Below are positions 28,329 to 59,164 of a stretch of DNA of 64,000 bases, piece by piece. How positions within the stretch are numbered: position 1 is the first letter of the stretch; every line of letters starts with the position of its first letter. This DNA is from Limnanthes douglasii subsp. nivea. Lineage: Eukaryota > Streptophyta > Magnoliopsida > Brassicales > Limnanthaceae. The stretch is from assembly GCA_036936605.1 (NCBI GenBank), contig JAUPFV010000001.1, positions 169,966,643-170,030,642 of the forward strand. The letters run 5' to 3'. The notes under the pieces are model-generated. The model did no database searches, was not told the origin of the DNA, and saw only the letters and a program-made list of their open reading frames with translations. A program made the translations under genes and the position numbers.

Positions 28329-28575
28329 TCTACTCAGATATTTCTTGTGTAACACTCTAATTTTGGAGCTGATTTTGCAAGGTTGTAGTAGTTTGGAAAT
28401 GAGAGAGAAAGTTGAGTTGGAGCTGGTTTAGATTTGGGAATGGTTAGTGTTTAGGGTTTTGAGTTAGTAAAAAATGAAACGGTGTTTTGGGTATAATGTT
28501 GAGGCTACTTAAAATTTGTTTGGGTATGGTTAAAATTGGGGTTGGTTAGCCAATTGTGCCCTAATTTAGCCAAAC
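28329..28575. repeat. Truncated right end of a MULE (same family as 29341-39209)
   Basis: Direct-orientation match to 38965-39209, starting near GATCTACTC and ending GCCCTAATTTAGCCAAAC. It keeps the terminal inverted-repeat sequence but none of the genes. It is a separate, truncated insertion that ends only 765 bp before the left end of the large MULE. Confidence 0.8.
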
Positions 28576-29330
28576 CCCTAGAGTATGAGTCAACTTTTAT
28601 TTGTGACAACAACATCCGAACGATGTACATGAATTAGAAAAATATAAATATTTTGAAAAATAATTTTTTTTAGATTATACAATTGCTTAAAATGCCATTT
28701 TTATGTTTATTATTATTTATTTTTTTTATTTTGTGATGATCTATTGCAACAATTGTATAAACCTAGACATAATAGGAAGAAGTGATAACTAAAAAAATAT
28801 AAACATCAAAATAATTAATGACTTTTTTTTATTTGTTTAATTATAATTTCTCGTATATTGGTAATTTTAGTAAATCAAAGATTGATATATTTTTAGTTTA
28901 TTATATATTTGAGTGATTATTTTTTACATTGATCTTAATTGATTTTTTTATATTATATATCTATTTAATTTCCAAAAAAAATAGTCTTTATCTTTTATTA
29001 TTGCTATTAAATATTATTTTTACCAACTTTTTATGTTCTTTTTTATTGTTTCTAAATTTTTGACATCAATAGATTTTTTAGAACCAAACTCTATTTATTA
29101 TTTTATTTTTATTTATTTTGGATTCGAGTTAATTGTAGTGACAAATAATTTATTTTTGATCGGTAGTAATTAGTCAAATTAACGTGAATTAATATAAAAA
29201 AGACTGACATATAAAAACTATACACATATTAGACAAAAAAACGTTTTTTTTTACACTTTTTGGATCTAAAATTTAAATTGTATAAATATTTTAAATAGTG
29301 TTTAAATAGAATTAGGATATTACATGGCTT
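28576..29330. other. AT-rich spacer, no gene
   Basis: Very AT-rich (long T and A runs) and without readable coding content. It lies between a MULE end fragment and the large MULE, and contains the left target duplication copy at its right edge (29331-29340). Confidence 0.6.
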
Positions 29331-29340
29331 AATATTTTTA

Positions 29341-29814
29341 GGTTTTTGGCTAAATTAGGGTAAAAAAAACTTTAACCATTCCCAAATTCTGGAATATCTT
29401 TTTTAATAAATAGTCAAAGATGGTTTTGTCATTTGACTAAGAATCTTTAATTTTCTCTTCTAGTGCATTGTGGGTATAGTTAACCAAATATAGAAAAACA
29501 CAAAATTACTCATTCCAATAATCCTTTTTATACTAAAAATTTAACCAAAAATTCAAAAACTCAAAATAATTCTGAAACTCCAAAAAATTCAAAAACTCAG
29601 AAATCACTAAGAAACTCCATACACTCTCAAACCTCCAAAAATCAACTAATTTTTCGAAAAGAATTCAAATCATTGAAGAATGGATTAAACACGTGAGAAG
29701 GTTGATGAAGAGCGTGGAACTGCAAACATGGTACTTGTTCTGACCAATCTTTCGAAAAAAGTTTCCGTTTTTGTAGATTTTCAATATTTAGAAAGTTGGA
29801 CCCGAACTACCCAA
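29341..29814. other. Left end and AT-rich subterminal region of the MULE
   Basis: Terminal inverted repeat followed by AT-rich DNA with CCAAAAATTC-type words; no gene. Confidence 0.6.
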
Positions 29815-30225
29815 AGTTGGACCCGAACTACCCCGCCGGGAGAAGCATCATCAACCAGCGGGGTTGAAGAACATTCAACTTTGAGGAAGAATGTTCTCCG
29901 CCGGTCGACGTCATGCCCAACCGGCTGTAGGATCGACTTCCAGCCGCCGACTGTATTATTAGTGTCCCGGCGGGTTATAGTGTCGTCACCGGCGGGGGCG
30001 AATCCTTAGAAATATTTACAAATTGGTGAAAAATTGTTATGGTCAACCCCGCCGGTTGGGTAATTGTCAACCGGGGGTCGACAATGCCCCTGTCGGTTCG
30101 AGTATTTTCACCCGTGTAGGTCATTACCGACCGATTTGTTTTGTCCAACCCGCCGGTTGGACAATTATCAACCGACGGTTGATAACATCCCCGGCGGTTT
30201 GGTATTTTTAAACCGGCGGGGAAGG
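29815..30225. repeat. GC-rich palindromic repeat cluster 1
   Basis: Alternating CCGCCGGTT and AACCGGCGG words about 15-20 bases apart, for example CAACCCCGCCGGTTGGGT at about 30045, CCAACCCGCCGGTTGGACA at about 30149 and a CCGGCGG pair near 30192-30221. Each pair can form a hairpin. Sharp contrast to the AT-rich surroundings. It lies between the left end and the transposase start, so it could be in the leader. Open frames here are repeat-derived and not taken as genes. Confidence 0.85.
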
Positions 30226-30330
30226 CGTTAATTAATATTATAATCTAATATTTTTTTTACGTAGATCGAAGATTTAAAGAATGAAAATTTTAAGGAGGAA
30301 GATTTTAAGGTCGAAGATTTTAGTTCGTGC

Positions 30331-33130
30331 ATGGTGAAGAAGGAGGAAACGCCGGTGTCTTGCTTGGTCGATTATAACCATTTGTTCGACACCAAATGTC
30401 ACTACTCTCAAGTGGAGTTGATCGAATGGGTGAAGCAGACCGCAACAGATAACGGGTTTGTGGTAATATTACGACGATGCGATAGACTTGATAGAAAAAC
30501 TCCGAGAATCGAGTTTGTATGTGAAAGATCTAGAGTTTACAAAAAATTAGTAGATCCGAAGCATCTAAAGAGGAAGTCAATCGGCACGAAAAAATGCGGA
30601 TGCCCTATCACCCTAAAAGGAAATAAGTTAGGTGATGATTTGTGGGTTTTAGAGGTCGAATGCGGCGTTCACAATCACGATATTACATCGTACAAAGAAG
30701 GTCATTCTTACTTGGGACGGTTGAACAAAGAAGATATGGATTTCGTAGTTACTTCTATGAAAATGGGATCCCATCCTCGAGACATTCTCGGTGGGGTTAA
30801 GAAGTTGAACCCCAAGAATTCTTCCTCAATGTGCATCGTCTACAACGCTCAACTAAAATATCGGAAGCTCGAGAAAGGTGGTCGGTCGAGATTTCAATAC
30901 TTGTTGGGCGAACTTAAGCGGCTAAACTACTATGAATTTTATATAAAGTCCGGAGACGGAAGCGATGTCATAGGCGAGCTTTTCTTTGCGCACCCGGTTA
31001 TTTTGGATTTTTTATGCACATTTCCAAACGTGATTGAAATGGATAACACGTACATGGTAATAAAATACGGGATGCCATTGTACGAGGTCGTCGGAGCCAC
31101 TTGTACGGAGAAGACTTTCTACATTGGATTCGCGTTTATGTTGGGAGAAAATTCGAGAGCTACAAATGGGTGTTACAGTGCTTACATTCTTTGATGGTAA
31201 CTCACTCCATCGAATTACCATCCATCGTTTTGAAGAATAGAGACTTGGAGCTTGTGAAGGTAGTCGAGGATGTGTTCCCCAATGCAACACACATGAACGT
31301 CCTAGGGAAAACAAAAAAAAATCATAAAGGATAAGAAAGTATCCAACGCATTCTTGAAAGTGTGGAATGAAATGATGTTGGCTGAAACAGAAATAGCGTT
31401 CAACGACTACCGAGCTGAATTGCACCGTGATTTCAAAGAGTATCCGGAAGCAATTGAGTATGAAAAGTTGGTTAGGGCTTTACGGTGACAAATTTTTGAC
31501 GTAGAGAACCAACAAGTGGATGCATTTTGGTAACCAAACCACAAACCCCGTGGAGAGCGCTCATTCGAACCTCAAATGTTTCATCGGTGCGAGCAAAGGT
31601 AACTTTGAATCTTTTTGGTTAAAGTTGCATAGCTTGATAGAATTACAGCACAGGGACATAAAGGGTTCATACGAAAAGAGTCGCTTGTTAGCCCTACACA
31701 AGTTCGTAAACAAGGTGTACGACAAACTAAAAACCAACGTCTCACACTATGCCTTGGCTATTTTGTCCGGCGAAGTAGATTGTGCTCGCAACATGACAAT
31801 CGCGGGTTGTATGCCTTGCGGTTTCTCAATACAAAGTACGCACGGTATCCCTTGCGCACACGAAATCTACGAGTTTGTTGCTATAGGGTTAAAGGTGCCG
31901 CTAGAGTTGTTTAACAAACATTGGAAGAGGTTGGAAATTTTAGTCCGTACAAACCACACGATTGTGGAAGAACTAAAAGTGAAGCTTGACAAACTACTAT
32001 GTGATGTCATGGAATCCAAAGATGAAGCGCGAATAGAGCACGTCTACAAAAAAATGGTTTTCCGTCGTTCATCTGTAAACAACTACCATTTTTGAGCCAT
32101 TGGTGAAGCCAAAAGCGTGCGGTCATCCACCTAACAAGGGCAAACTTTCTATTTTCGTTGATGATACATCCACTAAACGCGACAAAAGTGCGCACGAGTA
32201 TGTTCTTCAATCGGAATATTCTAGTTCTCCTTCATTTGCTAATGAATTCAAATCTCCTTCGGCAACGTCAAGTAAAGGGAAAACAATCCGGGGAGTAAAA
32301 TTAGTTCTGATAGTGGTGCCGCTCGTAAGAAAGGTAGTCTGATTCCAACCCAAGTAGGTGGAACGATGCGTTCTAGTGGAAAGGTTGGTTGTAGGTTAAG
32401 ATTAATGTTTCCGGCCAAGGTAAGTTTTGTAGACCCTAAAGGATACTTAATACAATTCCTCATCTACTTTAGACCATTTGTGGAGTCAATTAATGACGTA
32501 AATGCCAATGGCCATTGCAGGTACCGCTCGATAGCGTATGCGTTGAGCGGGAAACAAGATGAGTGGAGGTTGATAAGGGATTCCCTTTACAACGAGCTGA
32601 TGGATTATGCATCCGTCTTTGTTAAAATATTTACAAGCATTGAGGAACTGATTGATGTTGCGGAGTGTGTGAAGTGCTCTAGTAACGTGGGTACTAAATC
32701 CCATTGGATGTCCATACCTGAGATGGGGGTGGCAATTGCATCTGCGTTTAACTGCGTACTCCATTTTGTTTGACTGTACCGAAATATGGACATCATCTTC
32801 ACTTTTCTCCCCCTAAATGGTGCATCGCCTCCAATGTCAAACCGGGTGGAAATCGGATTGGGCTGGGTCAACTCCAACCATTTTGTTAACGTAAGTATTT
32901 TTTGACCTTCATGATTAGTTCTAACATTAAGACATTTATTTTATCGACGTTTCATTTTGTAGCTTGGGATTAGGGTGGACGCCCCTTGCGCTAGGATACA
33001 TCCATCTTGGCTAAAGTTGCATTCACATGAAGCAGAGGGTTGGGCATTGCCGATTGTCTCTCGTTGCAAAAGATATCAAGAACTAAAAAATGGTTGCCCC
33101 GATGTAATAGATTTATCTGCTTTTGCTTGA
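30331..33130 (+). pseudogene. MULE transposase with FAR1-like N-terminus, SWIM finger and C-terminal OTU protease domain
   Basis: Starts at ATG 30331. A FAR1-type DNA-binding region comes first (residues about 20-120: RIEFVCERS, GTKKCGCP, VECGVHNHD). The MULE catalytic core follows: FPNVIEMDNTYMVIKYGMPL (first Asp), then NRDLELVKVVEDVFPNATHM, where the second Asp is Asn, and FGNQTTNPVESAHSNLK (Glu). A SWIM-like STHGIPCAHEIYEF lies near 31840-31880. After about 32100 comes a basic linker, then an OTU domain at about 32470-32890: NANGHCRYRSIA with the catalytic Cys, and NSNHFV with the catalytic His. A 72-nt GT-AG intron (32891-32962) leads to a last exon ending TGA 33128-33130. Breaks: frameshifts near 31150, 31320, 31500 and 32090, TGA near 31486 and near 32772. 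Normally nuclear; cuts and moves the element. Confidence 0.85.
32366..33130 (+). pseudogene. OTU-type cysteine protease domain of the MULE protein
   Basis: Listed separately because it is the unusual part. Readable residues: FVESINDVNANGHCRYRSIA (Asp and Cys of the OTU Cys box), DEWRLIRDSLYNELMDY (the helix following it), WMSIPEMGVAIASAFN, and after one TGA (about 32772) the His box VNSNHFVN directly at the splice site. The last exon adds LGIRVDAPCARIHPSWLK and a tail. OTU proteins are known deubiquitinases or deSUMOylase-like proteases; which substrate this one had cannot be told. The frame agrees across the TGA, so it was once one exon with the transposase or its immediate follower. Confidence 0.8.
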
Positions 33131-33394
33131 TTACTATGTTATTGTAATGCGCATGCATGCTAACTTTTGATGTTTTTTAAGTTGATGTTTGTAATAAAAA
33201 CACAAAAAATTTATGTTTGAGTTTGTCGTTTATTTTATGTTTTCCTTTGTGCTAATTTATGCTTCTTACTGACGTATGGATGTTCCTCGAACGTTAACAA
33301 CATACAAATAATATATACCCTCTTGTGGCATACGTAGATCGTACGAAAGATGCAAGTTAATTGTAAAATAAAACACTACGATTGGACCACTCCG
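33131..33394. other. 3' flank of the transposase-OTU gene
   Basis: AT-rich, contains AATAAA-like words (GTAATAAAAAC near 33190) that could be the polyadenylation region. No gene. Confidence 0.5.
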
Positions 33395-33850
33395 AGGGTT
33401 GAGAAGTTTTCAACGGGCGGGGGACGTGGCTTGTAATGAAAGAAACAGCTTATGAAACTTTCATGTTTATCCCCGCCGGTTTGAATTTTTCATACCGGCG
33501 GGTGGAATACTCAACCGCCGGTGTAAAAACGTCACCGGCGGTGTACAATATTGATACCTGCGGTTTACCTAGGTAGGCATTAAGGATAAAATGAATTTTA
33601 ATTTCATGTTAGTCAACCGCCGGGTGAATATTTTCATACCGGCGGTTGGAATACTCAACCGCCGGTTGGAATACTCAACCGCTGGTGTTAAAACGTCACC
33701 GGTGGTTGGGAATTTTTACACCGGTGGTTTTAACGCACCCTTATTTCGCCTCATGTAATTTACTTTAGGTTCCCACTAGTTGAGCATTTGTCAACCGGCG
33801 GTTCACAACTGCTCCGGCGGTGTAGAATTTTCAAATCGACGGGGTGGGCA
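33395..33850. repeat. GC-rich palindromic repeat cluster 2
   Basis: Runs of AACCGCCGG and CCGGCGGTT words, with a local tandem copy of TTGGAATACTCAACCGC (two in a row near 33648-33680). Located between the transposase-OTU gene and the minus-strand ORF, both of which end toward it. Confidence 0.85.
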
Positions 33851-33977
33851 TTAAATGAAAAACAATAACACTTGAACTTCGTTTTAAGTCGATTGCATTA
33901 AAACATTACACTTAAATCAAAAGCATTGCATAATTAGAAATACATAAGAAAATAAGTTAAAACATATGATAGATAAG

Positions 33978-34457
33978 CTAACACTGAGTAAACATAGCGC
34001 ACTTAGTTTCATGGAGACGGATAGTTCCATCCATGCTAATAGCAATTGTCAAATGGATATTCCTCTTCCTCACTACTTCCTCCGGGACTTGTGTGTTAGT
34101 ATCAACGGCACTGGCAATTGATTCGGCTATTTCTTGCTCCATTTGTTGCTCCGCATGTGACACCATCTCCTGCGTAATTGTACTTTGGAATCCCATGTTG
34201 AATAATTTTCGGACATGGCTTCAGACTTCATAAGGAAGTGACTCAATCTGTATAGTCATTGTTTTAAGATAAGCTAACCTATCGGCCACATCTTCGCTTC
34301 CGCGTGGTCGGGGCATTAAGCATCCTAGACACGATGCCTCCCTACCGTGGTTGAAGAACATTCTGCACAAAACCGCATTGACGAAACCAGGAATCTCCTT
34401 TTGCATCGTACCTCTGATGAAGTCAAATGCGCTTAGGAGGTTTGCATCTTCGTGCAT
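33978..34457 (-). pseudogene. Unknown MULE-borne ORF, one nonsense codon
   Basis: One continuous minus-strand frame from ATG at 34457 to 33978, cut by a single TGA at 34221-34223 between IQIESLPYEV and SHVRKLFNMGF. About 159 residues. The N-terminal half is mixed and contains LLSAFDFIRG and CLMPRPRGSEDVADR; the C-terminal half is helical and acidic (MVSHAEQQMEQEIAESIASA). No family recognised. It is divergent from the SANT-like ORF at 34796 with a shared 300-bp upstream region, and convergent with the transposase-OTU gene. A role in transposition is only inferred from its place in the element. Confidence 0.55.
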
Positions 34458-34795
34458 GTTCCAGCCTGAATCAGCCTTAATTATAACTTAAATGTTTAGT
34501 TTCATACTCAGATTCTAGTATTTATAGACTCGAAGTTGGTGGTTCAATTCTAAAATAATTAGCGGGAAATAGTGTTTTTATTCCCGCATAAAACGTTTCG
34601 AAGTGGGAGTTTCATTTGGCTGGAGACTCATTTGGCAGGAGTTGGAATTTGGCGGGACTTATTTTGGTGGGATTTTATGTGGCAACGTTTTTGGCGGGAG
34701 TTTATGTGGCAAAGTTTTTGGTGAGAATTTAATGTCTATAAAATAAATTTTCTATCCACACATTGAAGGGTAAACAACTTGAAAACCCAAAAAAA
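34458..34795. promoter_or_regulatory. Divergent intergenic region with E2F-like sites and TATA box
   Basis: Between two divergent ORFs. TTTGGCGGGA occurs at 34648-34657 and 34690-34699, fitting the plant E2F consensus WTTSSCSS, with near-copies (TTTGGCAGGA at about 34631, TTTGGTGGGA at about 34663) between and before them. TATAAAATA at 34737-34745 stands about 55 bp before the plus-strand ATG at 34796. Binding is inferred from consensus only. Confidence 0.5.
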
Positions 34796-35154
34796 ATGTG
34801 TTCGTGGAATGAGTTAGAAGATCTATATCTGATGAAAGCATCAATCGAAGTTGGTAACACGCACATGGAAGAGGGGTGTAAAGCGTACTGGGAGGCATTG
34901 CTATGTCAGATGTACTTCTTATACGAAAGGGATGGTGTCCAACCGGCAAGAATTTCAAGGCGTGTTGATGAGGTGAAGGCTAGGTGGTCATCCTACTCAC
35001 ACTCCGTCTTCATCCGGTTTCTGGCCTCACCGAATTAGAATGTCGTGTTGCGTGCAACCGGTTCAACTGCCAGGTCACGGATTCGATAACGGAGGATCAG
35101 CTGGATAGGGTCTGTTCTAACATTATCGACATCCGCTTACAGGAAAGGAGTGAT
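34796..35154 (+). pseudogene. SANT/Myb-like small ORF carried by the MULE
   Basis: Start chosen at ATG 34796 (MCSWNELEDLYLMKAS), downstream of a TATA box; an upstream in-frame TTG is unlikely. The protein starts with W-x2-LED-x2-L, continues GCKAYWEALLCQM, then RISRRVDEVKARWSSYSH, with the Trp spacing of the SANT/Myb-like DNA-binding family seen in Harbinger partner proteins and related plant proteins. The frame ends at a stop at 35036. One base away a second frame (LTELECRVACNRFNCQVTD) runs to TGA/TAA near 35154, so a 1-nt frameshift near 35020 is likely. About 118 residues. Assignment to SANT-like rests on the Trp pattern and is tentative. Confidence 0.5.
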
Positions 35155-35194
35155 TAACTGGATAGTTTCAGTTTGTATCAGTTTGTCTTTCGGT

Positions 35195-36150
35195 TTGTCA
35201 ACCGTCGGTTGGAAAATGCTCAACCGGCGGTGTAGAGCCTTTCGTGCTAATTTTGTTTAGATGAATGTATCTTCTATTGTATGAGGTTTAATGATGAATG
35301 TATCTTCTTAGATTAATGTATCTTCTTAGATGAATGGGGTGAAAACTTCCCCAACGGTGTCAAATTTTCATCTCGGCGGGGTGATTCTCAACAAGAGACT
35401 TAGAATGGGTAAACAACTGTAGTTGTAATACATATGACATAAGAGCCTTTCCAAAAATGCTTCTTTCCTATCTTCATCCAACTCAGCGGGCGAATCCTTC
35501 ACTGCTATAAGCATATAGTAGTCTTCATTAGGCGTAAACTCCATTTGTTTTTTAGTGTTTGATGGATGTCATGTTCCTTGATAATACTTGTATATTTATA
35601 ATGGTATTCTGATGTTGGCGGAAGTCTCATTTTGCGGGAGAGTCACTCAGTTTGTTCGTAGTAGTTCCCCGCAGGGTCAGACATTTTCAACTGCTGGTTG
35701 AAAAATCCCCCGGCGGTGTAGAATTTTCAAGAGGCCGGGGTGATTGCGAACAATTGACTTAGAATGGGTATGGCACATAGGCCTTGGACCCCGTCGGGTC
35801 ACACATTTTCAATCGCCGGTTGAAATACTACACCGGGAGGGTGAAAAAAATCCCCCGGCAGTGTAAAATGTTTATCCCGACAGGGTGATTCTAAGCAATA
35901 GACTTAGAATTTGTATGGGACATTGGACTAGGACACCGTCGAGCCACAAATTCTCAACCGTCGGTTGACAATGTCCCCGGTGGTGAACTAATTGTCACCC
36001 GGCAGGGTTGATGAATAGAAAATTCAAATTTTCTTCTCGCCACCAACCAGTGGGTGAAAATATGTCGACCGCCGGGTGACATAGTTTCACCCGGCGGGGT
36101 AGTTTTCAACCGGGGGGTGGAAAGTGTTCCATCGCTGGGGTGAAGGAATT
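35195..36150. repeat. GC-rich palindromic repeat clusters 3 (several islands)
   Basis: Islands at about 35200-35240, 35345-35390, 35665-35745, 35785-35890, 35930-36010 and 36050-36150. Typical pairs: CCGTCGGTTGG with CAACCGGCGG (35206-35240), and CCGCCGGGTGA with CACCCGGCGGGG (near 36070-36100). Between the islands a phrase close to GACTTAGAATGGGTA recurs (about 35396, 35757, 35900), so a larger unit of about 120-360 bp was duplicated too. Confidence 0.85.
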
Positions 36151-36391
36151 CCAAACACAAATAAATATACACTTGTACAATATGTCGACCGCTTCTTCCA
36201 TGTTTACAGTTTAAATGGAAAACGTGTTTTGGTTGAATTCATGGTACAAGGACAAACAATACACAAAATGACATTATATCACGCGAACAATGTAGTTAAC
36301 AACAAATTGAAAACAAGAGTATTGTGATCATGGTACAACAACACAAAATGTAAAACATGGAAAACACAATCCACAAAATGTAGTTCACAAA
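36151..36391. other. 3' flank of the PMD gene
   Basis: AT-rich with repeated ACACAAAATG words (about 36262, 36342, 36370). Likely the 3' untranslated region of the minus-strand gene. No other gene. Confidence 0.45.
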
Positions 36392-38372
36392 CTAAAACAA
36401 CATGCTAATGACGAATGCGACTACCATAATCAAAAGCCACGGACTAGTGATCTCCAACACCTTCTTTGCAAACGACATGAGATCGTCGGGGGAATTGTCT
36501 AACGGCCAAACATGATTAATCGTGTTGATCGCATCAACGGCGGACCTCTCGGTAAGAATACAAGGCGTGATGTAAACCAACCGTACCTCTTCACAGACTC
36601 CTTGTACAGTGCGGATGACGTGTGGCTACTCCCTTCCAAGGAGTACCTATCGATAATGTAAAGGTGCTCTCTCGAGTTCGTCCAGTGCCTCCCATGCAGC
36701 GCATAACAGAGATGGTCTCCTCTTTCTAGACCGGTTCTAGCCAAAAGGGGGTCCAGCGGCTTTTCCTGGATCCAACCAAACTGCCTCATCACTCGGTCCG
36801 GGTGATATGCTTCGCTTACTAGCATAAGGCGACTAGGGTTCCGATAAAACCCTATTTCCTGCTCCGACCACACTTCACGTCCATCCTCGTAAGGTCGGAA
36901 TATCACCTACAAAAAAGCAATTACTCATAAAATCATATAATTAATAGACAAATAATAATATACGTAAACAACAATACTTACTTCCGTCTCTCCTTGCGCC
37001 GTGAGGATGTCATGGTAGTAAGGCTTCTTGCGAACTACTGATCCCGTGATTCTTTTGGGCAACCACGCTACCATTTTTGGGTTGGTCGGACTATAACCCT
37101 GTTAACCGCCGCCCGGAAGATGGGAAAGTGGTCGTAGATCCAACATTCCATCATGGCAAAAAACCCGACCAAGCTCTTCAACGAGTGCTTTGAAATACCT
37201 CCCAAGGTTTTGTAAAACCACACGAGTGCACATATACCCCATGCATACTTACGTCAGTCAGACAAATCCTCGAGGAAGTGGAAAAAATCACACTGGATGT
37301 TCTTCTGGCTCGTGTTTGCGAAGACGGTACACCCAAGGAAGAACATGATGTATGCCCTAACAGCTGATTTCTTCATCTCCATAGTGAGGTCGGCATTGGA
37401 ATCCAAATACTCCTCCCCGCAAAACGTCGTTCGTAGCCATCGGAGGCCGAACCCACTCCCGTCATGCGCCTCCATATCCTCTCGCACAACATCCGCCGAA
37501 ACTCCCAACAACGTGCATATGTTGCACCTATATCCTCCATCCTAAATGCGTCGATAATTATCCCCTCGACCGGGAGGCCAATGATGACATACACTTCATC
37601 TATCGTGATGGTCATCTCCCCAAACACAAACTGGAAGGTGTTGGTCTCTTGGGGCCACCTCTCAATGAACACCTCCGCCAACTATACGTGCGTGTTAAAA
37701 TTCGGAAGATGGCGCATTAGTGGCCAGAACGGTGTCTCTTCCAACAAAGCTTTGACACCCAAATGCTTGCTAAGGTCCCACTAACCGAGCAGACCGTACT
37801 TCGACTGGACGGTGATACTAGATCGTGGCTGCAAAAAACCCAAACACAGATTTAATTTTAACAAAATAATTTCACAAATAAAACAGTTAAACTAATAACA
37901 AAATATAAGTTAATCCAAAATTCAAAAACTTACGTCGTCCATGAATGTGCAGTACGCCTAATGCTGCGCGTACTCCGGGAACAGAAGGATATTGTTTTTG
38001 GATAAAAACAAGTTCCTCCATCCTTCCGGATCAGTAGGAAGTCCGACCGTACCCTCTCTTCGAGGTGGTGGCATTGGGACCTCCGTTTCCTCCTCCGTCT
38101 CGACCTCGTCTATTAGCGCACGGCATGGAGGAGAAGATCGTACTCCGGGCTCCCTTGGGGCATCACGATCCCTTGTGGCTTCATATTTTCTATGCCGCAA
38201 GGATCGTTCCCCGGGGCTCAGGCGCACCTCACACTCGGTATGTTCTTTTTGTTCGAGGTGATCAACCGCCGACCGTCGGCTACCTCCTTCGCCTTTCTTT
38301 GGGGGAGGGACTTCCCGTTCTCGCCTTAGGATTTTAGACGCCTTCTCTTTCGCGGGGCAAGGTGCTTTGTGT
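36392..38372 (-). pseudogene. Plant mobile domain (PMD) gene with introns and C-terminal hydrophobic tail
   Basis: Minus-strand gene in three readable exons: 38372-37934, 37828-36982 and 36906-36392, separated by GT-AG introns of 105 nt (37829-37933) and 75 nt (36907-36981). An acceptor-like GCCGCAG at 38373-38379 suggests one more upstream exon. Exon 1 is basic, Pro/Glu-rich. Exon 2 has the PMD core: FIERWPQETNTFQFVFGEMT, ITIDEVYVIIGLPVEG, RAYIMFFLGCTVFAN and RKYAWGICALVWFYK. Exon 3 has VIFRPYEDGREVW and YHPDRVMRQFGWIQ, and ends in WLLIMVVAFVISMLF, a possible membrane anchor. PMD proteins such as MAIN/MAIL1 act in the nucleus in silencing; many PMDs are transposon-borne. Breaks: stops near 37785, 37690 and 37252, frameshifts near 37100 and 36585. 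Confidence 0.82.
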
Positions 38373-38424
38373 CTGCGGCAACAAATAGAACAAAATAAGT
38401 TAGAATTTCTACAAAATTAACTAG

Positions 38425-38692
38425 GTCCCCGTCGGGTGAACATTTGTCATCCTGCGGGGAAATATATTTAATTCTTGAAATTAATTTCAACCCCGCCGGT
38501 TTAACTATTTTCACCCGGCGGGGAAATATATTTAATTTTAAAAATTAATTTTCACCCGACGGGGAAATATTTTTAATTTCAATTTTATTTGTTGCCCCGC
38601 CGGTTCAAACAGTGCATACCCGACGGGGATGAAGCATTTTCTAGAAAAAAAATATCTTCCCCGCCGGTATGAGTATGCTCACCCGGCGGGGG
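38425..38692. repeat. GC-rich palindromic repeat cluster 4 (hairpins in AT-rich spacers)
   Basis: The most regular cluster. CCCCGCCGG is followed after about 11-15 bases by CCCGGCGGGG or CCCGACGGGG, at 38491-38523, 38595-38628 and 38659-38691, plus 38427-38460 in weaker form. GC-only stems are separated by AT-only spacers such as AAATATATTTAATTTTAAAA. It lies between the PMD gene and the right end. Confidence 0.88.
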
Positions 38693-39209
38693 GTCTCAAA
38701 CAGACCCTCAACCTCCATTGACAACCTGAAACCAAAACTCGAAAATCTAACCTAAAACACCAAATCAAATCAGTCACACCAACTCTACCTTAGCATCAAT
38801 ATACAACTAAAAACAACTAAATAAACATACTTCGCCTATTCTAACAGCCAATGTATATCAAAATCTTCAAAACTTAAGAAAAATTAAATTTAGCAAAAAA
38901 CTATATTTAAGTGTATAAACTTACTCTTTTCTTTTTTCCCATTGTTGTTCCTGACTGGGTATGGATCTACTCGAGTTCTTGAAATTTGAATTTGGGGCTG
39001 ATTTTGGAAGATTGTAGTAATAGAGAAATGAAAGGGAAACTTGGGGTTGGTTTTAATTTGTTTTTGTTTTGGGGATGGTTAGTGAATAGGGTTAGGACTT
39101 AGTAAAAACGAAAGGGTGTTTTTGGTATAAAATTGGGCTACTTAAAATATGTATGGACATGGTTAAAATTGGGGCTGCTTATCCAAGAAAGCCCTAATTT
39201 AACCAAAAC
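38693..39209. other. Right subterminal region and end of the MULE
   Basis: Non-coding. Ends GCCCTAATTTAACCAAAAC, the right inverted end. 38735-39209 is present again at 53060-53523 and, from about 38965, at 28329-28575. Confidence 0.8.
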
Positions 39210-39219
39210 AATATTTTTA

Positions 39220-39773
39220 TTGTTATTCCAGAAAAATATGTAGTTAGTAATTTTACGAGATTGTGTTGTTATTTTAAATTACGATAACAAATAGAAACAA
39301 AATACAAAATAAATTTCATATCACATGTGTTGGTGTTTGGACAATTTTAACTTGTTCTATTATAAGTAATTGTAAGATGGTTTTATATTAATAGTAAGAT
39401 AATTGTTTTATCCGTATACATAAAATTGAGTATCGTTATATTTGATGGAAATTTTTTTATCTAATAAAAATAATCATCATATCATTATCAATCTTTTTTA
39501 ACAATTCATCTTTCAGAAATATTGAAAAAATGTTCAAAAAGTTACAAAACAAATGTCTCATATTATTTTTATTTTAACTATGTGAATGTTTGATGCTACA
39601 ATTATGTATAACATTACCAACGACTCTTCGTAATTATAAATACGAAGACAATGAATTTTAGTATAGACGAATATTATTTAAAAAGATAGAGAAACACTAG
39701 CTATAACAATAAGTTCAAACTTAAAACTGAAATGGTCTGCCTGATAAAAATTAAAATAAGAACCTATATAGCC
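39220..39773. other. AT-rich flank with the empty copia target site
   Basis: No gene. CAATT at 39599-39603 is the uninterrupted target corresponding to the duplicated CAATT around the copia element in copy 2. Confidence 0.7.
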
Positions 39774-40108
39774 ATGTTGAGAATAACTCGAATAACATAC
39801 CTTGTGATTCGTGTATTCAAAATATAAATTAAGATGCAATAGTAGTACATTATTGTATTATTGGTAGTTGTTAATCGTGTTTTTTTATGAATCCATTAGG
39901 CCATTTATATAGAAAGTTTTATTTCTCTTCTATAAATATAGTATTATGGTGAAAAAAAAGACACTCAAATTTGTAACCATTTTGTATTACATCGTTCGTG
40001 GACGTAGAGTTATTGTCAAATATTAAATGTTGTGTTATTTTATTTTCATGTTTTTATGTAGTTTTGTGTGTGAGCCATGTGTAAAAATATTACATCTTAT
40101 TTTATAAT
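39774..40108 (+). repeat. Candidate 5' LTR of the copia relic
   Basis: Begins TGTTGAGAATAA. In copy 2 (about 59367-59693) it ends TTATAACA, giving TG...CA. It is followed within a few bases by TTGGTATCA at 40112-40120, the initiator-Met primer-binding site. No 3' LTR is recognisable. Confidence 0.55.
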
Positions 40109-40112
40109 AGAT

Positions 40113-43100
40113 TGGTATCAAAACATAAGTTTTTTTTTAAAATTAGCATTTATAATGGTGTTTACATCAACAAAATCAAAATAAAAATCAAAATATTTGA
40201 TAAAGGGATACAACTTTATGTTGTGGAAGATTAAGTTGTAATACTCTATAGTAATGCAAAGGTTGTGGAAGAATGTGGTGAATAAGTTACTAGTACACAT
40301 GAAAAAGAAGAGAGGCAAGATTTTCAAGAAAGGGCTCTATGTTGAATTTTAAGAAGTGTAAATGATAATGTTTTTTGAGATTATTGGTGACAAGACTGTC
40401 TGCGCATAAAAGAAGTCGCGAGAACTTTACTAAAAGAAATCAATTGTGGACCGGTGATTTTGGAAAAAATGCTCGTATGAGTTTAGATTGAAAGAAGGTA
40501 TATTCCTAACTTAACATATTGATAATCTTAAGTCAATTATTATCGATCTGGAGAATATTGATATCATAATAAAAAACGAGTATAAAACCTTATTTATTTG
40601 AGACAACTATCCACTTTCTATTGAAATTTCATCGATACCATCACATATGGTAGTGACAAGTTATCTTTGGAGGATGTTAAATGGTCGATCAAATCAAAGG
40701 AGTTGAGACAGTTGCAGCCAAAAAATCAGGCAGAAGACGACCGTCTTATGATCATAAGAAGATCTAGAAAAAGGTGAGTTCTTAAAATGAGAAGAATTTT
40801 AAGGTGATCCAAATCAAAATTCAATAATTCAAATTTTTATGGTTTGGTGAGCATGATCATTACATGAAACATTATTCAATGCTGAAAGGTAAGGGGAGAA
40901 ATCAAAAGGAAAATACGGTGAACCTAACGGAAGGTATGAACGATTTTGATTGTAGTGAAAACAATGGTAAATGATATGTGTTTTTGTGAGTTCATATTAT
41001 GGTCAAAACTATTCGGTACTCTATATTGGCTCTAATTTCCATATGTGTCACTTTAAGGAGAGTTACTATATTACAAACAAATGCAAGAAATTCTGTATTG
41101 GAGAATAATCATTTTTATACGTTTGCTGGTGTTCTCAGAATGGTGAAGTGTTGGCATGTTCCCACGTCGAAGAGGAACTTGATATCTCTTGAGACACTGG
41201 AATCTTGAGGATACAAGTATTATACAAAATATAGTGTAATTAAGATAACAAAGAGCTCGAATATGGGCATGAAAGGTAGTTTTCAAAAGGTGTTATGCAT
41301 TCTTCACAGAAGTGTTGTTGTGGACAATGCTCCAGTAACATCATCTAGGAGTAACCACCAAACTCACTAGGATCATAACCAATAATGGAATTGCAATTTT
41401 TTCACTTAAATGAAAGATGATTAGTTTTTTTAGGCAAAATAGTAATATTGAAAATTATAATGAATTATACTCACTAAGATATGTAGGGTTTGAAAACACA
41501 AGGTGGGCATATTCAACCTTTGTCAACTAGAAGACGATGATTGAGAAGAATATAAGAATAAATAGCAAGTGTTTTAAGAGAAATATTGGGTTAGAATTTT
41601 TGCAGTCGTGTGTTCAACCAGTTCTACGATACTAAGCAAAAAGTGTAATTCTAGCACACCACAACATAATGAGGTTGCACAAAGAATGAACATAATACTT
41701 TGTGACAATTTATGAAGCTTCCTCTTGTATTTCGATGAGGGAATGAAGTTTTAGGATACAACTATCAATATATTGTGTGTTACTTAGTGAATCAGTCACC
41801 AATATCTATTAATTGTAAGAATGCCTTTGAGATTTGGTCTGGATCTTTGCATGATTAAGAGAAATTGATCGTGTCCGGTTGTCTTCTGTACGTTTAATAA
41901 TTGTTTTATCAAGTCGTGAAACATAGTTCAATTCGAGTTTTTTTAACCATAATAGTTTTGGAAGATTTGGATCTTGAGTAGTTGGATGTGAAGATTACAA
42001 TTCCACATGGTGAATTGGAGAAACTAATCCACACAAAACAAATATAGCTATTTATCTAATAAATTGGAGGGTAATGTTTATCTACAATCACCAAGACAGT
42101 GATACAAATAAATTGATACATTCATAATGTCAATATGGTTCACAAATAATGCATCTCGAATTTGTGGTATCATCAGAAGATGTCACATAATTCTTATATT
42201 TGGTTGTTGTTGTGTATAGATGATATGCTCATCACTGCTTGTAATATGTCATACATCGTGAAGATAAAGAAATATCTTAGTGTCGAGTTTGAGAAAAAGT
42301 ATTTATGTATGGGAAATAAGATTGTTGAGATGAATATTACCAGGAATACTTACGATCATCACACTTTACTCAACGAAACTACATTGAGAAAATGTTATAA
42401 TGATTCACCATGTTTGATGCTACGGTAGTTGGCATCTCGTTCGCTATTTATTTTAAGATGTCTCGACCAGGTTCGGTCAATGATGATATTTAGTTGGAAC
42501 AAATGCCAAAGGTTCCATACTCAAGTGAAGTTGGAAGTATCATGTACGCTATTTAGTATACATGTCATATTTCACATGCAGATAGTGTGGTCAACATGTA
42601 CATGAGATGTCTTCGGAAAGAACACTGAGATGTAGTGAAATAGATACTTTAGTATTTTAAAAATACTGCAAATGTTATCTTGATTTTCAACTACACCAAC
42701 GTTGATGAATCGTTGAACAATATGACAGGATTAGTGGTGGGTTTTATTAATTCTTATTCCACATGTGATATGGATAAATGAGTTCTTTGTCAGGATATGT
42801 GTTTACTCTATATGGAAATGCAATCAACGAGAAAGCACAACTGCAATCTATTGTAGCTTTGTATATAAATGAGGTATAATACATGGATTTAGCATAAGAA
42901 ATTAAGGACAAAATATGGTGGAATGTTTGATGGCATATTCGAGCAAGGATAAGACTACTACAAAAAACATTTCTGACACTCAAAGCGACACACACCTTAT
43001 TGGGAACCAGATCTACACGAGCGTATAAATCACATACATGTCATGTATCATTGTATTAGGATATAATATAAAAGAGAGTTGTTGATGTAAAGAAAGTATC

Positions 43101-43589: not shown

Positions 43590-44743
43590 CGCAGTAACAT
43601 GCGAGTTCAACAATGAGAGTTCTATACATTTTTAACCATGCGAGTTTATTGAATATTAGACATGAGAGTTCTTCATTATAATCAAACAATGAGAGTTCTT
43701 CATTAGATATTTATGGTTCAAACCATGAGATTTCTGTACATTTTAAACCAGAAATGTGTATGTACATTATGTTTCCAATCACGAGAATTCTGTACATTTT
43801 TAACCATGCGAGTTTATTGAATATTAAACATTAGAGTTCTATATTATACTCTAACCGTGCGAGTTCTTGTATATTATTAAACCATATGATTTTAACAATG
43901 AGATTTTAACCATTAGAGTTCTGTACATTTTTAATCATGCGAGTTTATTGAATATTAGACATGGGAGTTCTTCATTATAATTCAACTGTAAGAGTTCTTC
44001 ATTAAATCCTTATGTTTCCAACCATGAGAGTTTTGTACATTATGTGTCCAACCAACAGAGTTATGTACATTTTTAACAATGCGAGTTTATTGAATATTTA
44101 ACATCAAAATTCTTTATTATAATTAAACTTTGAGAGTTCTTGTATATTAAACCATTAGATTTTAACCACGAGAGTTCAACAATGAGAGCGCTATACATTT
44201 TTAACCATGAGATTTTATTGAATATCAAACATGAGAATTTTTTATTATAATCCAACCATGAGAGTTCTTAATTAGAACCTTATGGTTTCAACCATGAGAG
44301 TTCTGTATATTTTTAATGATGAGAGTTTTATACATCATGTTTCCAACCATGAGAGTTCTGTATATTTTTAACCATGCGAGTTTATTGAATAATAAACATG
44401 AGAATTCTTTATTATAATGCAATCGTATGAGTTCTTTGTATACCCTAGCAAAATAAAACCATGTGAGTTCTTCGTACTACAGCTAAAGAAAATACGAGTT
44501 CAATGTATTTTTAGAGGATGAAGATGTGAGTTTATTGTTACTTTAAGATGTACATTGATAGAAAATTAAAAATAGAGTCTCGCATGGTTGATTACGCATC
44601 ATCTCGCATGTTATGACGAAAACAAATTTACAGTAATTCAAAAAACATTCATTAATGGATCTAGTTTTGTTCGTCTTCAAAACAAACCGATGGTACTTTC
44701 AGATTTTTTTTCCGAGCTACAGTTTGAAAGATACTGAGTTTTT
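43590..44743. mobile_element. Minisatellite-bearing inverted-repeat element (relative of 11699-12194)
   Basis: The right arm (44600-44743) is homologous to the arms of 11699-12194 (ACAAAACTAGATCCATTAAT and CTGAAAGTACCATCG on the minus strand). The left arm is mostly missing; only a short GCAGTAACATGCGAG match at about 43591 remains. The interior is a 0.9-kb tandem array. No transposase. Confidence 0.6.
43600..44530. repeat. Degenerate minisatellite with higher-order period
   Basis: A unit near AACCATGAGAGTTCTGTACA (about 25-35 bp) repeats throughout. A larger unit (GTACATTTTTAACCATGCGA, then GTTTATTGAATATTAAACAT, then a GAGTTCTT(C/T)ATTATAAT part) recurs at about 43616, 43793, 43916, 44058, 44190 and 44355, spacing 120-180 bp. 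Confidence 0.9.
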
Positions 44744-45095: not shown

Positions 45096-46990
45096 AATTG
45101 TAGAAAGGTTTGAATATAATATGTTTATTATCTTCTTGAAACATGTTTAACATTATTTTACTGTACAGTGGTGAATTCATCAAGATTAAAGAACAAAACT
45201 ATACTAGATCAACATTAGGTTATTGTACAGGATTGGAAAAATAATTTTAGATTTATATCAACATTTAATAGATTTTATGAAGGATTGCCAAAATGGTAAA
45301 AACTATGACCAAAATGAAGACTTGGTCAAACAAGTACAATAACGCAAAGCAATAAAGCTATGACCAAACTGATAAAAGAGACTAGACATCAACGTTTTCA
45401 TCGAAGGATTGGTTGGTTTAACTTGATTGATTGTGGAATCTAGAAGGATTGACTGGCCTGATAACCTTGGTATCAAGGAATCTGAATCGGGGGATCATAA
45501 ATTATGTGGAAATATATCAAATAGGCTATGGTTGGAGAGGAGCCAAATATTCTAACATTACTCTCACCCCAAACATGGTAGACAATATCACCGAAGCAGA
45601 CACGCTAAAAGTGTCGTAAACTGGATGAAGGTCAATTGGACGCCTCATAGATACAAGACACCCGATTGAAGTTGTATCTTAAAGATAAACAAATATTGGA
45701 GCTGCAAAAACCCCATATACTTTGGGTAATCGTGTAGTCATAAAGGATATGATTAATGGTTTCAGATGAGAAATTGCGTAAGACACAATTCGGGGAGGGC
45801 GTTTTTCAACCCTAACTTAGGATCTTATCACATATGGAGAGTGCTCATTGGATACCGATCCATATAATGAAAGCATAACGGGGAATATTGAATTTTTTCC
45901 ATACTAAACCTGGCATAATGGGTGATCATACGAATGTCATTGTAAGTATCATTGATAGTAAACTTGATGATTCGTTTATTAGCATTCTAGTATTGGACGT
46001 CATTGATGGTGGTGATTCGCGTACTAGCATTCCAGTATTAGAATGAGTCAGCCAATTTTAGAGAACATCCCGAGTGAAATCAAAAACCTTAAGGTTTCTC
46101 CCCAAACCAAAATCATGAACAATACAAATCTCCTAGTGGTTAACCAAATAGGTTAAGATCAACCGCACGTCGAACTTGAATGATTTCTTTTTCCAATTAC
46201 CAATCGTAACCCAATACAATTGCTTAACGAGATGCCTAAGATTTAAAATTTTCCCCCAAATCCAGTGGGTGAAAAATTAGTCTTTAAATACATAATATTT
46301 TTGTCTCTAATCTTTATAGAGTAAATTCACTCACATCAAACTGATTTGTCGAGTTTACTAACGATAAACCACATAAGTTTGAGGACCACCGCCTAATTCC
46401 AGGTTTTTAGGTCTAATATACAAAGGTTGTCGTCTAATAAGGGCAAGGTTATAGCTTACAATACCACTTTAGCACCAACACGCTTCAAATCGTTTCCATA
46501 CCAAAAACAAATAACGGGGATATTGTAAGTGTTGCTTAAGAACTCTACAGGAGATAATGAAGACCAAAGACGAATAAAACTACACCATGGAAATAAAATA
46601 TTTAATAAGATGGAGCCTACCCATATAAGAGAGGCGTTTGGAAGTCTATGAGACAATACGGATAGTAATTTTGATAAGAAGGAATCGTCAATCAATATGG
46701 TGACCCGAGTGCAGCAGGACTTCAAGGTATTTACAAAAGGGAACCAACGTTAAAACAAATGATATTAATCAAATTTGATTTAAGATATGGGGTAACCTTA
46801 GTGATGAAGGTGTGAATTTTAGGAGGTGTGACTTTAAGGCTCGAGAGAATAGAAAAATCATTAAGATCATCCTTTATAAAAGTGAGAGAATTGATGTCAC
46901 CACGAAAACAATCATTAGGTCGTATGCAAAACAAAGGTTGATAATCTTAAGCTTATGACACATCTAATGGAATTTAAGATCCACCTCTTT
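45096..46990 (-). pseudogene. L1-like LINE ORF2 relic, RT C-terminus and zf-RVT domain
   Basis: Minus-strand LINE relic. RT palm segment near 46930 reads KIINLCFAYDLM, where the FADD catalytic motif has become FAYD, then FRGDINSLTFIKDDLNDFSI (46731-46934). 46456-46725 continues with LSVLSHRLPNASLIWVGSIL, LSNTYNIPVICFWYG. The segment LCILDLKTWN lies near 46420. Near 45740-45800 PNCVLRNFSSETINHILYDY is a zf-RVT-type C-x-C...H remnant. Several stops and frameshifts. The 5' half (endonuclease, first RT blocks) is not recognisable to the right. Confidence 0.75.
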
Positions 46991-52300: not shown

Positions 52301-53060
52301 GCAGAAAAATTTGCACTTCCAAGAACTCTATTTCTATAAAAAAATTATTTTATTTTATTTCCAGTATATTGTGTTCCATGAACATATTTCTGGGTTTTTT
52401 TAGTATCAAATTACTTTTATAGAACTTTGGAAATCTATTTTTGATTTGTTTATTTAAAAACAGATTAACTTGTTTTTTTATTCATGACTCTCTGATTTTT
52501 GTTTGTTTCCATTTTTACAATATTAAATTATCTTGTTTGTTGATTGAGTGATTTTTTGAGGTGTTAGATCTTTGGTTTGGGGGTGTTTCTTGTCTATGTT
52601 TAATTTTTTAGAAATTTGAGTTTTTTTTTTTAGTTTTTAAGGTTTAATTTTAGAAGTCAAATGATTTATGTTGGATATAATTTGACTTAATGATGTGTTT
52701 GTTGGAATAATGGTTAGTGTGTAGTGACATCAAAATATAAATTAGAAAATAAATTAAGAACAAAAAGGTAAAAGCAAGTTTTAAGTATTTTTTTTCTATA
52801 AATTTGAGATAGAAGAAATAATAAATCTCATGGGGAAATAGCTTCACCCTTTGTCAATTCTTACCGTGGAGTTTGATGTTTTTGTTTGAATGTTTAATAC
52901 ATAAATATTAATTTTATTAATTTCTGTTAAATACGACAATAAAATTTCAAATAACTAATAAATTTACTCATGGAGTTAATTTTAAGAAAATATTGTTGAT
53001 GTAAAAAAAAATTTAAAATGTGAATAATGAATAGAAAAACTTGGAAACTATAAAATTAAA
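48491..53060. repeat. Block A, copy 2
   Basis: Colinear with 112-4671. It ends abruptly at 53060, where sequence identical in type to the MULE right end (38735 onward) begins; the shared AAAACTC/AAAACTCC at the joint is short microhomology. 49560-51910 is AT-rich without genes. Confidence 0.9.
51911..52857. mobile_element. Inverted-repeat element with promoter-like DNA, copy 2
   Basis: Counterpart of 3537-4480. The ends contain GGGTGAAGCTATTTCC and its exact reverse complement. It keeps the TATAAATA box at 52152-52159 and the CTATCAAAG|GTAAAA donor at 52230. Confidence 0.6.
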
Positions 53061-53523
53061 ACTCCAAAATCTAACCTAAAACAGCAAATCAGCCACACCA
53101 ACTCTACCTTAGCATCAATATACAACTAAAAATAACTAAATAAACATGCTTCGCCTATTCTAACAACCAATGTATATCAAATCTTCAAAACTTAAGAAAA
53201 CTAAATATAACAAAAAACTATATTTAAGAGTATAAACTTACTCTTTTCCTTTTCCCATTGTTGTTCCTGGCAGTATGGATCTACTCGAGTTCTTGAAATT
53301 TGAATTTGGGGCTGATTTTGGAAGATTGTAGTAGTAGAGAAATGAGAGGAAAAGTTGGGGCTGGTTTTGATTTGTTTTTGTTTTGGGGATGGTTAGTGAA
53401 TAGGGTTAGGACTTAGTAAAAACGAAAGGGTGGTTTTCGTATAAAATTGGGGCTACTTAAAATATGTGTGGGTATGGTTAAAATTGGGACTGCTTATCCA
53501 AATAGACCATAATTTAGCCAAAC
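53060..53523. repeat. Truncated MULE right end
   Basis: Copy of 38735-39209 without the rest of the MULE; ends ATAATTTAGCCAAAC. It marks the start of the duplicated unit. Confidence 0.85.
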
Positions 53524-53914
53524 ACATATTTTTATTGTTATTCCAGAAAAATATGTAATTAGTAATTTTACTAGATTGTGCTGGTATATAAAATTAAGAT
53601 AAAAAATAGAAACAAAATACAAAATAAATTTCACATCACATGTGTTGTTGTCCTACCGATTTTAACCTGTTCTATTATAAGTAATTGTAAGATGGCTTTA
53701 TACTAATATTAATATAATTGTTTTATCCGTATACATAAAATTGAGTATCGTTATATTTGATGGAATTTTTTTATCCAATAAAAATAACCATCATATAATT
53801 ATCAATCTTTTTTAACAATTCAAATTTCAGAAATATTGGAAAAATGCTCATAAAGTTAAAAAAATGTCTCATATTATTTTTATTTTAACTATGTGAATGT
53901 CTGATGCTACAATT

Positions 53915-54409
53915 TGTAGAATATAGTGTTTCGTTTCCGGATAATCTCTAAAGTCTTGTAAACAATTTCTTATTGAAATATTTTTGGGGTTCTCCAAAAA
54001 TTTCAATTGGATAAAATCAGAGATATATATTTTGAACAGAGAGGATGAAAATGATATAATATCCTTTTCAACAGAACCCATATTTATAAATTCGACCAAC
54101 CAAAAAACAGTTTGGAAGTTAGGGCAGTTAGGGTCTCTAAACTGGTTTTGTAATAAAACGGCTGAAATTTAAAATTTGAATAAAACGGTCAAATTTTTAA
54201 TTTCAAAATTCTGTTGACTTGCAACAATAGCCGATTTAACCAAAATAAAAAATTTCCAAGCTCGACCCGAGCCACGGGCTCCACCCCTTGACCCCGCTAA
54301 TAATGATATAATCTAACAAGCGTGCACTCCGCACTCTACGACTTGTTTGATAATATATCATGATTAAATTGGTCGACTAGTCGATCCAATTAAACTAAAA
54401 TAAATAACA
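53915..54409 (-). repeat. Copia 3' LTR
   Basis: 495 bp. I count about 25 differences from the 5' LTR (roughly 5 percent), clustered partly in the GCTCGACCC...CCCGCTAA segment. A TATAAATA box on the minus strand lies at about 54080-54090. Confidence 0.95.
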
Positions 54410-55900: not shown

Positions 55901-55903
55901 AAC

Positions 55904-58624: not shown

Positions 58625-58663
58625 CTCTATCTTCATCAACAAGACCAGAATATTTCAATAAAT

Positions 58664-59159: not shown

Positions 59160-59164
59160 CAATT

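What the first reader, a model, noticed from the sequence alone, without database searches (positions are those of the whole stretch)
29331..39219. A 9.87-kb MULE that carries transposase-OTU, an unknown ORF, a SANT-like ORF and a PMD gene
Seen: exact 10-bp direct repeats AATATTTTTA next to matching inverted ends, and four different protein relics inside one unit. Known: MULEs make 8-11 bp duplications, some encode an extra protease (ULP1 in Kaonashi), and PMD genes are often transposon-borne. Inferred: the cargo travels together and may serve the element, for example PMD against silencing, OTU for processing or ubiquitin removal, SANT-like for DNA binding. This combination is the best candidate for an undescribed system in the window.
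Basis: partly seen in the sequence, partly recalled or inferred. Interest (0 to 1): 0.88.

Follow-up and report, generated by a model that had tools for sequence, protein, structure and literature searches.

The report
Dead plant MULE with motif arrays
A long-dead plant jumping gene carries a transposase and a second well-known passenger gene, and its spaces between genes are packed with evenly spaced copies of one short DNA motif found almost nowhere else nearby, which looks like a docking strip for a protein that may once have kept the element switched on.

Summary
A 9.87-kb Mutator-like element (MULE) lies at 29341-39209 with an exact 10-bp target duplication and short inverted ends, the best such pair of 8148 tested. 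It is old and dead: transposase and PMD genes are broken. The OTU-like part is not separate cargo but the C-terminus of a FAR1-MULE transposase that exists as one open protein in several dicots. A PMD gene on the opposite strand is certain (Pfam 6.4e-42), but PMD genes, often antisense, are already described in plant MULEs (PMC6446971, PMC5418596). The SANT-like and unknown ORFs match nothing in Pfam. So the gene set is a variant of a known kind.

The four larger non-coding blocks carry CCGNCGG at about 20.7-bp period: 33 exact copies in 4.2 kb of non-coding element, against 1 in 5.7 kb of coding sequence and 1 in the other 54 kb of the window. The layout, not the sequence, resembles VANC-target arrays of Arabidopsis VANDAL elements. 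My best reading, inferred, is a binding platform for an element-encoded protein, possibly for anti-silencing. No second full copy could be examined: home-genome search did not complete.

The parts
29331..29340 (.). left target-site duplication AATATTTTTA
39210..39219 (.). right target-site duplication AATATTTTTA
29341..29360 (+). left terminal inverted repeat
   Evidence: 16 of 17 matches to the right end
39192..39209 (-). right terminal inverted repeat
   Evidence: homology of the 28.4-kb relative stops here
29833..30219 (.). array 1 of CCGNCGG sites, between left end and transposase reading frame (perhaps a 5' intron)
30265..33130 (+). broken transposase gene: FAR1, MULE, SWIM-like (by eye, no Pfam match) and OTU-like parts; candidate intron about 32891-32962
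32489..33130 (+). OTU-like C-terminus; catalytic Cys and His kept, the Asp before the Cys reads Asn
33392..33842 (.). array 2, between the 3' ends of transposase and unknown ORF
33978..34457 (-). unknown ORF, 159 codons of which one is a stop, no Pfam match
34458..34795 (.). divergent promoter region without exact CCGNCGG sites; four TTSSCGS (E2F-like, recalled) matches, in part in a 27-bp repeat
34796..35157 (+). short ORF called SANT-like; seems to change frame once; no Pfam or database match
35202..36116 (.). array 3, between the 3' ends of the short ORF and PMD; includes a 145-bp tandem repeat
36499..38942 (-). broken PMD gene; candidate exons, from splice-like motifs, 38942-38925, 38372-37934, 37828-36982, 36906-36499
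38429..38689 (.). array 4, inside the candidate first intron (38924-38373) of the PMD gene
28362..28577 (+). solo right end of a related MULE, 78.5% identical; not part of this element
53058..53524 (+). tandem-duplicated right end (about 91%), with its flank; not an independent transposition

Best explanation
This is an old, inactive MULE of a plant, laid out like MuDR. Shown: ends, target duplication, a FAR1-MULE transposase gene with an OTU-like C-terminus reading inward from the left, a PMD gene reading inward from the right, two short ORFs between them, and arrays of CCGNCGG in the four larger non-coding blocks. Inferred: when alive, the left gene made the transposase that cut the element out. 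One of the element's own proteins (PMD, the short ORF, or the transposase itself) bound the CCGNCGG arrays cooperatively, one site about every two turns of the helix. That binding marked the element's own DNA out from the host's and kept it expressed against silencing, as VANC does on VANDAL elements.
For: Sites: 33 exact CCGNCGG in 4205 bp non-coding, 1 in 5664 bp coding, 1 in 54111 bp outside. The motif was picked from these same data; as a control, of all XXXNYYY patterns it is the most enriched in the element (34 v 1), and none of five other segments of the window has a comparable one. Spacing: 35 of 52 neighbour gaps are 19-23 bp, against a mean of 7.8 and a maximum of 18 in 2000 random placements; best period 20.7 bp. 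Arms of the 20 pairs 22 bp apart do not covary (7.8 of 11 v 7.68 for shuffled partners, 1641 of 5000 reach it), which fits single sites rather than hairpins. Layout match: VANC21 sites are short motifs arrayed in introns and upstream non-coding parts of VANDAL21 (PMC5735166 passages; PMC10398659 passages). Array 4 sits in the candidate PMD intron 1. PMD in MULEs has been proposed as anti-silencing (PMC5418596).
Against: One dead copy only; no binding, expression or methylation data. No array-bearing relative was found: the two other right ends in the window hold no CCGNCGG, though neither reaches the array positions. VANC21 motifs lie in one orientation; these sites are palindromic and often in inverted pairs. 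The only PMD-linked motif I came across, DOWN (CATGCAGTTT in the MORC1 promoter, PMC9899485), is unlike CCGNCGG. Arabidopsis PMD proteins MAIN and MAIL1 support silencing rather than oppose it (PMC7156037, PMC5418596). The link of PMD to VANC's DUF1985 is a sub-threshold match (17.1 bits, cut-off 35.1).
Confidence: 0.42

Rival explanations
1. The arrays are by-products: a short GC-rich minisatellite that spread through the non-coding parts of the element by slippage and local copying, without function. Coding parts lack it only because insertions there were removed while the element lived.
For: Local tandem duplications are visible: 145-bp (77-78%), 64-bp (83%) and 20-bp units (81%). Minisatellites are listed in some other MULE groups (PMC6446971 Table 1).
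Against: The same core recurs in four blocks, mostly kilobases apart, near-evenly (9, 9, 7 and 8 exact sites); cores are kept at 86-96% per position while the flanks are not, though sites were chosen for at most one core mismatch. The divergent promoter and the last 267 bp have no exact site.
Confidence: 0.28
2. The arrays are sites for the transposase itself (subterminal sites), used for excision rather than for expression.
For: Two of the four arrays lie about 0.5 kb from each end; the transposase has a FAR1-like domain.
Against: The other two arrays lie 3 kb or more inside, where a cut-and-paste enzyme has no evident need of them.
Confidence: 0.13
3. The arrays act as RNA or DNA hairpins, for example as transcription stops between convergent genes or as a source of small RNAs.
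For: Single strands fold far better than shuffles: z -9.6, -6.0, -9.9 for the three of four arrays folded. Arrays 2 and 3 lie between convergent genes.
Against: No covariation between arms of the 20 pairs 22 bp apart, a weak test in a decayed element; nine further neighbour pairs are spaced 19-20 bp in mixed orientation. Fold scores follow from any array of palindromes.
Confidence: 0.1
4. A host transcription factor that favours CCG-rich sites binds the arrays.
For: Host factors with CCG-containing sites are known in plants (recalled).
Against: Only 1 exact site in the other 54 kb of the window; no host factor with a 7-bp CCGNCGG palindrome is known to me. Not tested against a motif library.
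Confidence: 0.07

Closest known systems
VANDAL21/VANDAL6 elements of Arabidopsis and their VANC proteins
   Same: MULE with extra genes; short element-specific motifs arrayed in introns and non-coding parts, in part as tandem repeats (PMC5735166, PMC10398659, passages)
   Different: Motif unrelated (YAGTATTAY or AGTTGTCC v CCGNCGG), palindromic here; no VANC gene found here, only a sub-threshold DUF1985 resemblance in PMD
MULE groups 42 and 45-50 of PMC6446971 with PMD, often antisense
   Same: Transposase plus a PMD gene on the other strand; group 42 also an unknown ORF
   Different: The table names no OTU and no FAR1 for the plant groups with PMD (FAR1 stands with groups 1, 35, 36 and an oomycete sub-group of 50); no motif arrays mentioned in the section read. 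I did not place this transposase in their tree
MuDR of maize (mudrA and mudrB)
   Same: Two main genes read inward from the two ends (recalled for MuDR)
   Different: Here the right-hand gene is PMD, not mudrB, and two further short ORFs lie between
FAR1-MULE-OTU-like proteins of dicots (Actinidia, Prunus, Malus, Melia, Diospyros; P0002-P0006)
   Same: Match 82-97% of the query at 32-34% identity; OTU Cys and His kept in the four aligned (P0002, P0003, P0005, P0006)
   Different: Those are open proteins, some with FHA or SET domains; this one is broken, with Asn in place of the Asp before the OTU Cys

Membership tests
Mutator-like element (MULE) | 8-11 bp target duplication | tested here: met
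   10 bp exact
Mutator-like element (MULE) | terminal inverted repeats | tested here: met
   short: 16 of 17 anchored bases; clear similarity does not extend into a long TIR
Mutator-like element (MULE) | MULE transposase domain | tested here: met
   PF10551, E 3.2e-7 on one open piece, 2e-14 on the read-through
OTU protease family | Asp-Gly-x-Cys box and catalytic His | tested here: inconclusive
   Cys and His invariant over 5 aligned sequences, Asp is Asn here; profile of the five hits OTUD5 at 4.7e-4; Pfam OTU below cut-off, in 1 of 5 C-terminal pieces and in 0 of 8 full relatives
PMD (plant mobile domain) | match above Pfam cut-off | tested here: met
   144.4 bits v cut-off 34.9 on the read-through, 47.0 bits on one open piece
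VANDAL/VANC anti-silencing system | VANC gene with DUF1985 domain | tested here: not met
   DUF1985 17.1 bits v cut-off 35.1, within PMD; not filed as VANDAL
VANDAL/VANC anti-silencing system | short element-specific motif arrayed in non-coding parts | tested here: met
   CCGNCGG, within this window only; sequence and orientation differ from VANDAL
VANDAL/VANC anti-silencing system | element protein binds the motif and removes methylation | not testable with these tools
   needs binding and methylation data
SANT/Myb-like protein | family match or three-helix fold | tested here: inconclusive
   no Pfam match up to E 10, no homologue at that tool's word-based sensitivity, only three chance-level hits in solved structures (best E 0.75), model pLDDT 54 with four helices
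ULP1-bearing MULEs (Kaonashi) | ULP1/C48 protease | tested here: not met
   no such match; the protease-like part is OTU-like

The most novel reading that the evidence does not exclude
A second, independently evolved sequence-specific anti-silencing system in a plant MULE: an element-encoded protein, most simply the PMD protein, binds phased CCGNCGG palindromes in the element's introns and intergenic parts and shields only its own family. It would give the transposon-borne PMD domain, whose function is unknown, a concrete DNA target.
Probability: 0.18. Interest if true: 0.85.

Novelty: new variant of a known kind. Interest (0 to 1): 0.5.

Why it matters
PMD genes ride in many plant transposons and their host cousins MAIN and MAIL1 act in silencing, yet what PMD does on a transposon is unknown. 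An element with a PMD gene and a dense, phased, element-specific motif gives a direct binding target to test. If relatives carry their own arrays, the VANC-like strategy would not be a peculiarity of Arabidopsis and its kin.

Tried and rejected
Other copies: the genome search on the home assembly was asked 17 times and never answered. Viral contigs gave nothing; genome contigs gave 23 pattern matches, none confirmed; these hold viruses and prokaryotes. Within the window the only other similar ends are 28362-28577 and 53058-53524; a fifth TIR-like match at 58978-58994 has 3 mismatches, and about one such match is expected by chance.

The unanchored TIR test did not put this pair first; the anchored test was designed afterwards. 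The arm test was out of register by one base and was replaced. The division into coding and non-coding stretches used for counting is mine and rough.

Models of the short ORF (pLDDT 54) and of P0005 (pLDDT 35) were too poor to use. A search of solved structures with PMD gave nothing relevant. Rfam at gathering threshold: 0 matches in the window. Three of the ten literature searches sought motifs or arrays: VANC and VANDAL; motif letters; 15 of 209 listed; MULE with subterminal or palindromic repeats; one listed. Their listings and abstracts show nothing on this motif in a plant MULE; most subscription papers are not held. The DOWN motif of PMD-dependent genes was compared and does not match.

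CpG and CHG counts were considered as evidence for anti-silencing and rejected as such: CpG is not depleted in the element (o/e 1.03 v 0.71 outside, though the 499-bp copia LTR has 1.16), but CWG is, so the two point in different ways.
Full report
What is there. The window holds a plant MULE of 9869 bp at 29341-39209 between two copies of AATATTTTTA. In an end-anchored test over all 8148 exact 10-mer pairs lying 1-20 kb apart in the window, this pair has the best inverted ends, 16 of 17 bases; the next have 14. An earlier unanchored score did not single it out. The long-range similarity of the two ends is weak, so the inverted repeats are short. The G+C content rises from about 0.3 to about 0.42 inside.

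Other ends in the window. The TIR pattern recurs at 28559-28575 (1 mismatch) and 53507-53523 (2 mismatches), and with 3 mismatches at 58978-58994, which chance could give. Self-comparison shows why. The window carries an old tandem duplication with a period of about 48.4 kb: 111-4673 matches 48490-53061 at 93%, 38734-39614 matches 53058-53924 at 90.6%, 39598-40818 matches 59159-60402, and 45288-48112 matches 61156-64000. A copia element with 95% LTRs (53911-59159) sits in the second copy. The 53-kb piece is therefore the duplicated right end with its flank, the rest of the MULE being absent there. I infer that the MULE inserted before the duplication. The 28362-28577 piece is a separate relative (78.5%); its homology stops at the TIR end, which supports the right boundary. 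Neither shows the interior, so gene order in other copies is untested.

Genes. From the left end inward runs a transposase gene: a FAR1 match below Pfam's cut-off and a MULE match above it (2e-14 for MULE on the read-through), a SWIM-like stretch (seen by eye; no Pfam match) and an OTU-like C-terminus. One open piece alone found one protein (P0001). A read-through found 11 proteins, among them open proteins of Actinidia, Prunus, Malus, Melia and Diospyros. The alignment of the C-termini of four of these with this one keeps the OTU Cys and His in 5 of 5; the Asp before the Cys is Asn here. Pfam calls OTU weakly here, in 1 of 5 of these pieces and in 0 of 8 full relatives scanned. A profile of the five hits OTUD5 at 4.7e-4 and, more weakly, OTUD1, VCPIP1 and OTUD3 among 27 matches, many of which are ribosomal proteins at E 0.13 or more. 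So transposase plus OTU-like part is a known single protein, not two cargoes. The gene changes frame at least five times, read by eye. Where 3 of 5 relatives have Asp in the TDREL-like motif, this copy has Asn.

From the right end inward runs a PMD gene (144.4 bits, E 6.4e-42 on the read-through), with splice-like motifs that I read as bounding four exons. Its candidate first exon lies at 38942-38925. In this copy the phase of that exon does not fit the long open frame of exon 2; in the 53-kb duplicate, whose exon differs in length, it does. This gene is broken too. Between the two lie an unknown ORF (33978-34457, minus, one internal stop) and a short ORF (34796-35157, plus, apparently one frame change). 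Neither matches Pfam; the short one has no homologue in the protein collection at that tool's sensitivity. The name SANT-like rests on nothing that I could confirm.

The arrays. Repeat search showed GC-rich units in the larger gaps between genes. The core is CCGNCGG, a palindrome; I picked it from these same data. Counting exact cores and all cores with at most one mismatch: non-coding element 33 and 60 in 4205 bp; coding 1 and 17 in 5664 bp; rest of the window 1 and 26 in 54111 bp. Fifty-seven non-overlapping sites lie in the non-coding parts. For the two commonest forms, CCGGCGG and CCGCCGG, 26 are seen, against a mean of 0.57 and a maximum of 4 in 200 dinucleotide shuffles of the element, and none outside. 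Among all XXXNYYY patterns CCGNCGG is the most enriched in the element (34 v 1); gypsy, copia and three other segments show nothing similar. Sites are phased: 35 of 52 neighbour gaps are 19-23 bp, against a mean of 7.8 and a maximum of 18 in 2000 random placements with a minimum spacing of 11; the best period is 20.7 bp over 287 distances.

Where the arrays lie. Exact sites per block: 9 between the left end and the transposase frame, 9 between the convergent 3' ends of transposase and unknown ORF, 7 between the convergent 3' ends of the short ORF and PMD, 8 in the candidate first intron of PMD; 0 in the divergent promoter region and 0 in the last 267 bp. So the arrays fill both halves of the element. 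That argues that the PMD half and the transposase half have long shared one regime, and against a late nested insertion.

What it may do. Three readings were tested as far as possible. Hairpins: three of the four arrays were folded, with z -9.6, -6.0 and -9.9, but the 20 pairs lying 22 bp apart show no covariation of their arms (7.8 of 11 v 7.68), so folding is likely a side effect of palindromes. This test is weak in a decayed element. Transposase sites: two arrays are too far inside. By-product minisatellite: tandem duplications exist, but cores are kept at 86-96% per position while flanks are not, over four blocks; note that the sites were chosen to have at most one core mismatch, which favours this. 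A binding platform fits best, with VANC on VANDAL as the model: VANC21 binds a 9-bp motif arrayed in introns and upstream parts (PMC5735166, passages), and both silencing and anti-silencing act on such non-coding parts (PMC10398659, passages). VANC proteins carry DUF1985. The PMD read-through gives a DUF1985 match far below cut-off (17.1 v 35.1 bits, E 0.0055): a lead, not a result.

Against this reading. There is one dead copy. The motif linked to PMD proteins in Arabidopsis, DOWN, is CATGCAGTTT in the MORC1 promoter (PMC9899485, passages), unlike CCGNCGG. MAIN and MAIL1 help silencing (PMC7156037, passages; PMC5418596). Which protein binds, if any, is open.

What is known already. PMC6446971 (section 6 with Table 1 read) lists PMD in groups 42 and 45-50 of plant MULEs, often antisense, with an unknown ORF in group 42, and an ovarian tumour gene in a cnidarian MULE. 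In that table FAR1 stands with groups 1, 35, 36 and an oomycete sub-group of 50, so no plant group lists both FAR1 and PMD. PMC5418596 (passages) describes PMD in MULEs and suggests anti-silencing. Kaonashi and MuDR details are recalled. Of the ten literature searches, sought motifs or arrays; listings and abstracts, and passages or a section of the six papers named here, showed nothing on CCGNCGG arrays in a MULE.

Verdict. The phased element-specific motif arrays are the part worth following. Interest 0.5; if an element protein is shown to bind them, much higher. The odds are as I first set them; mending the text did not require a change.

Noticed in passing
window 111-4673 / 48490-53061, 38734-40818 / 53058-60402, 45288-48112 / 61156-64000: Old tandem duplication of about 48.4 kb, 90-94% identical, with large differences in content between the two copies.
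   Followed up: partly
window 53911-59159: Copia element (named by eye) with 95% identical LTRs and open frames of up to 424 codons, inserted in the second copy of the duplication.
   Followed up: no
window 30265-33130: CAG/CTG is depleted in the transposase gene (21 seen, 64 expected by first-order Markov) with a matching excess of CTA/TAG and CAA/TTG (about 20 and 22), while CpG is not depleted. Looks like loss at CHG sites without loss at CG sites. Most of the other DNA is also CWG-poor (0.55-0.97 by segment; one other 2-kb bin reaches 0.34), so this may be less special than it looks.
   Followed up: partly
window 34458-34795: Four of the 17 TTSSCGS matches of the window (E2F-like consensus, recalled) fall in this 338-bp divergent promoter region, in part within a 27-bp tandem repeat.
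   Followed up: no
P0002, P0003, P0004: Proteins with MULE and, in P0002 and P0003, an OTU-like C-terminus that also hold an FHA domain (Actinidia) or AWS and SET domains (Prunus, Malus): possible host-transposase fusions.
   Followed up: no
window 43595-44442: Diverged tandem repeats of several hundred bp (68-83% identical).
   Followed up: no
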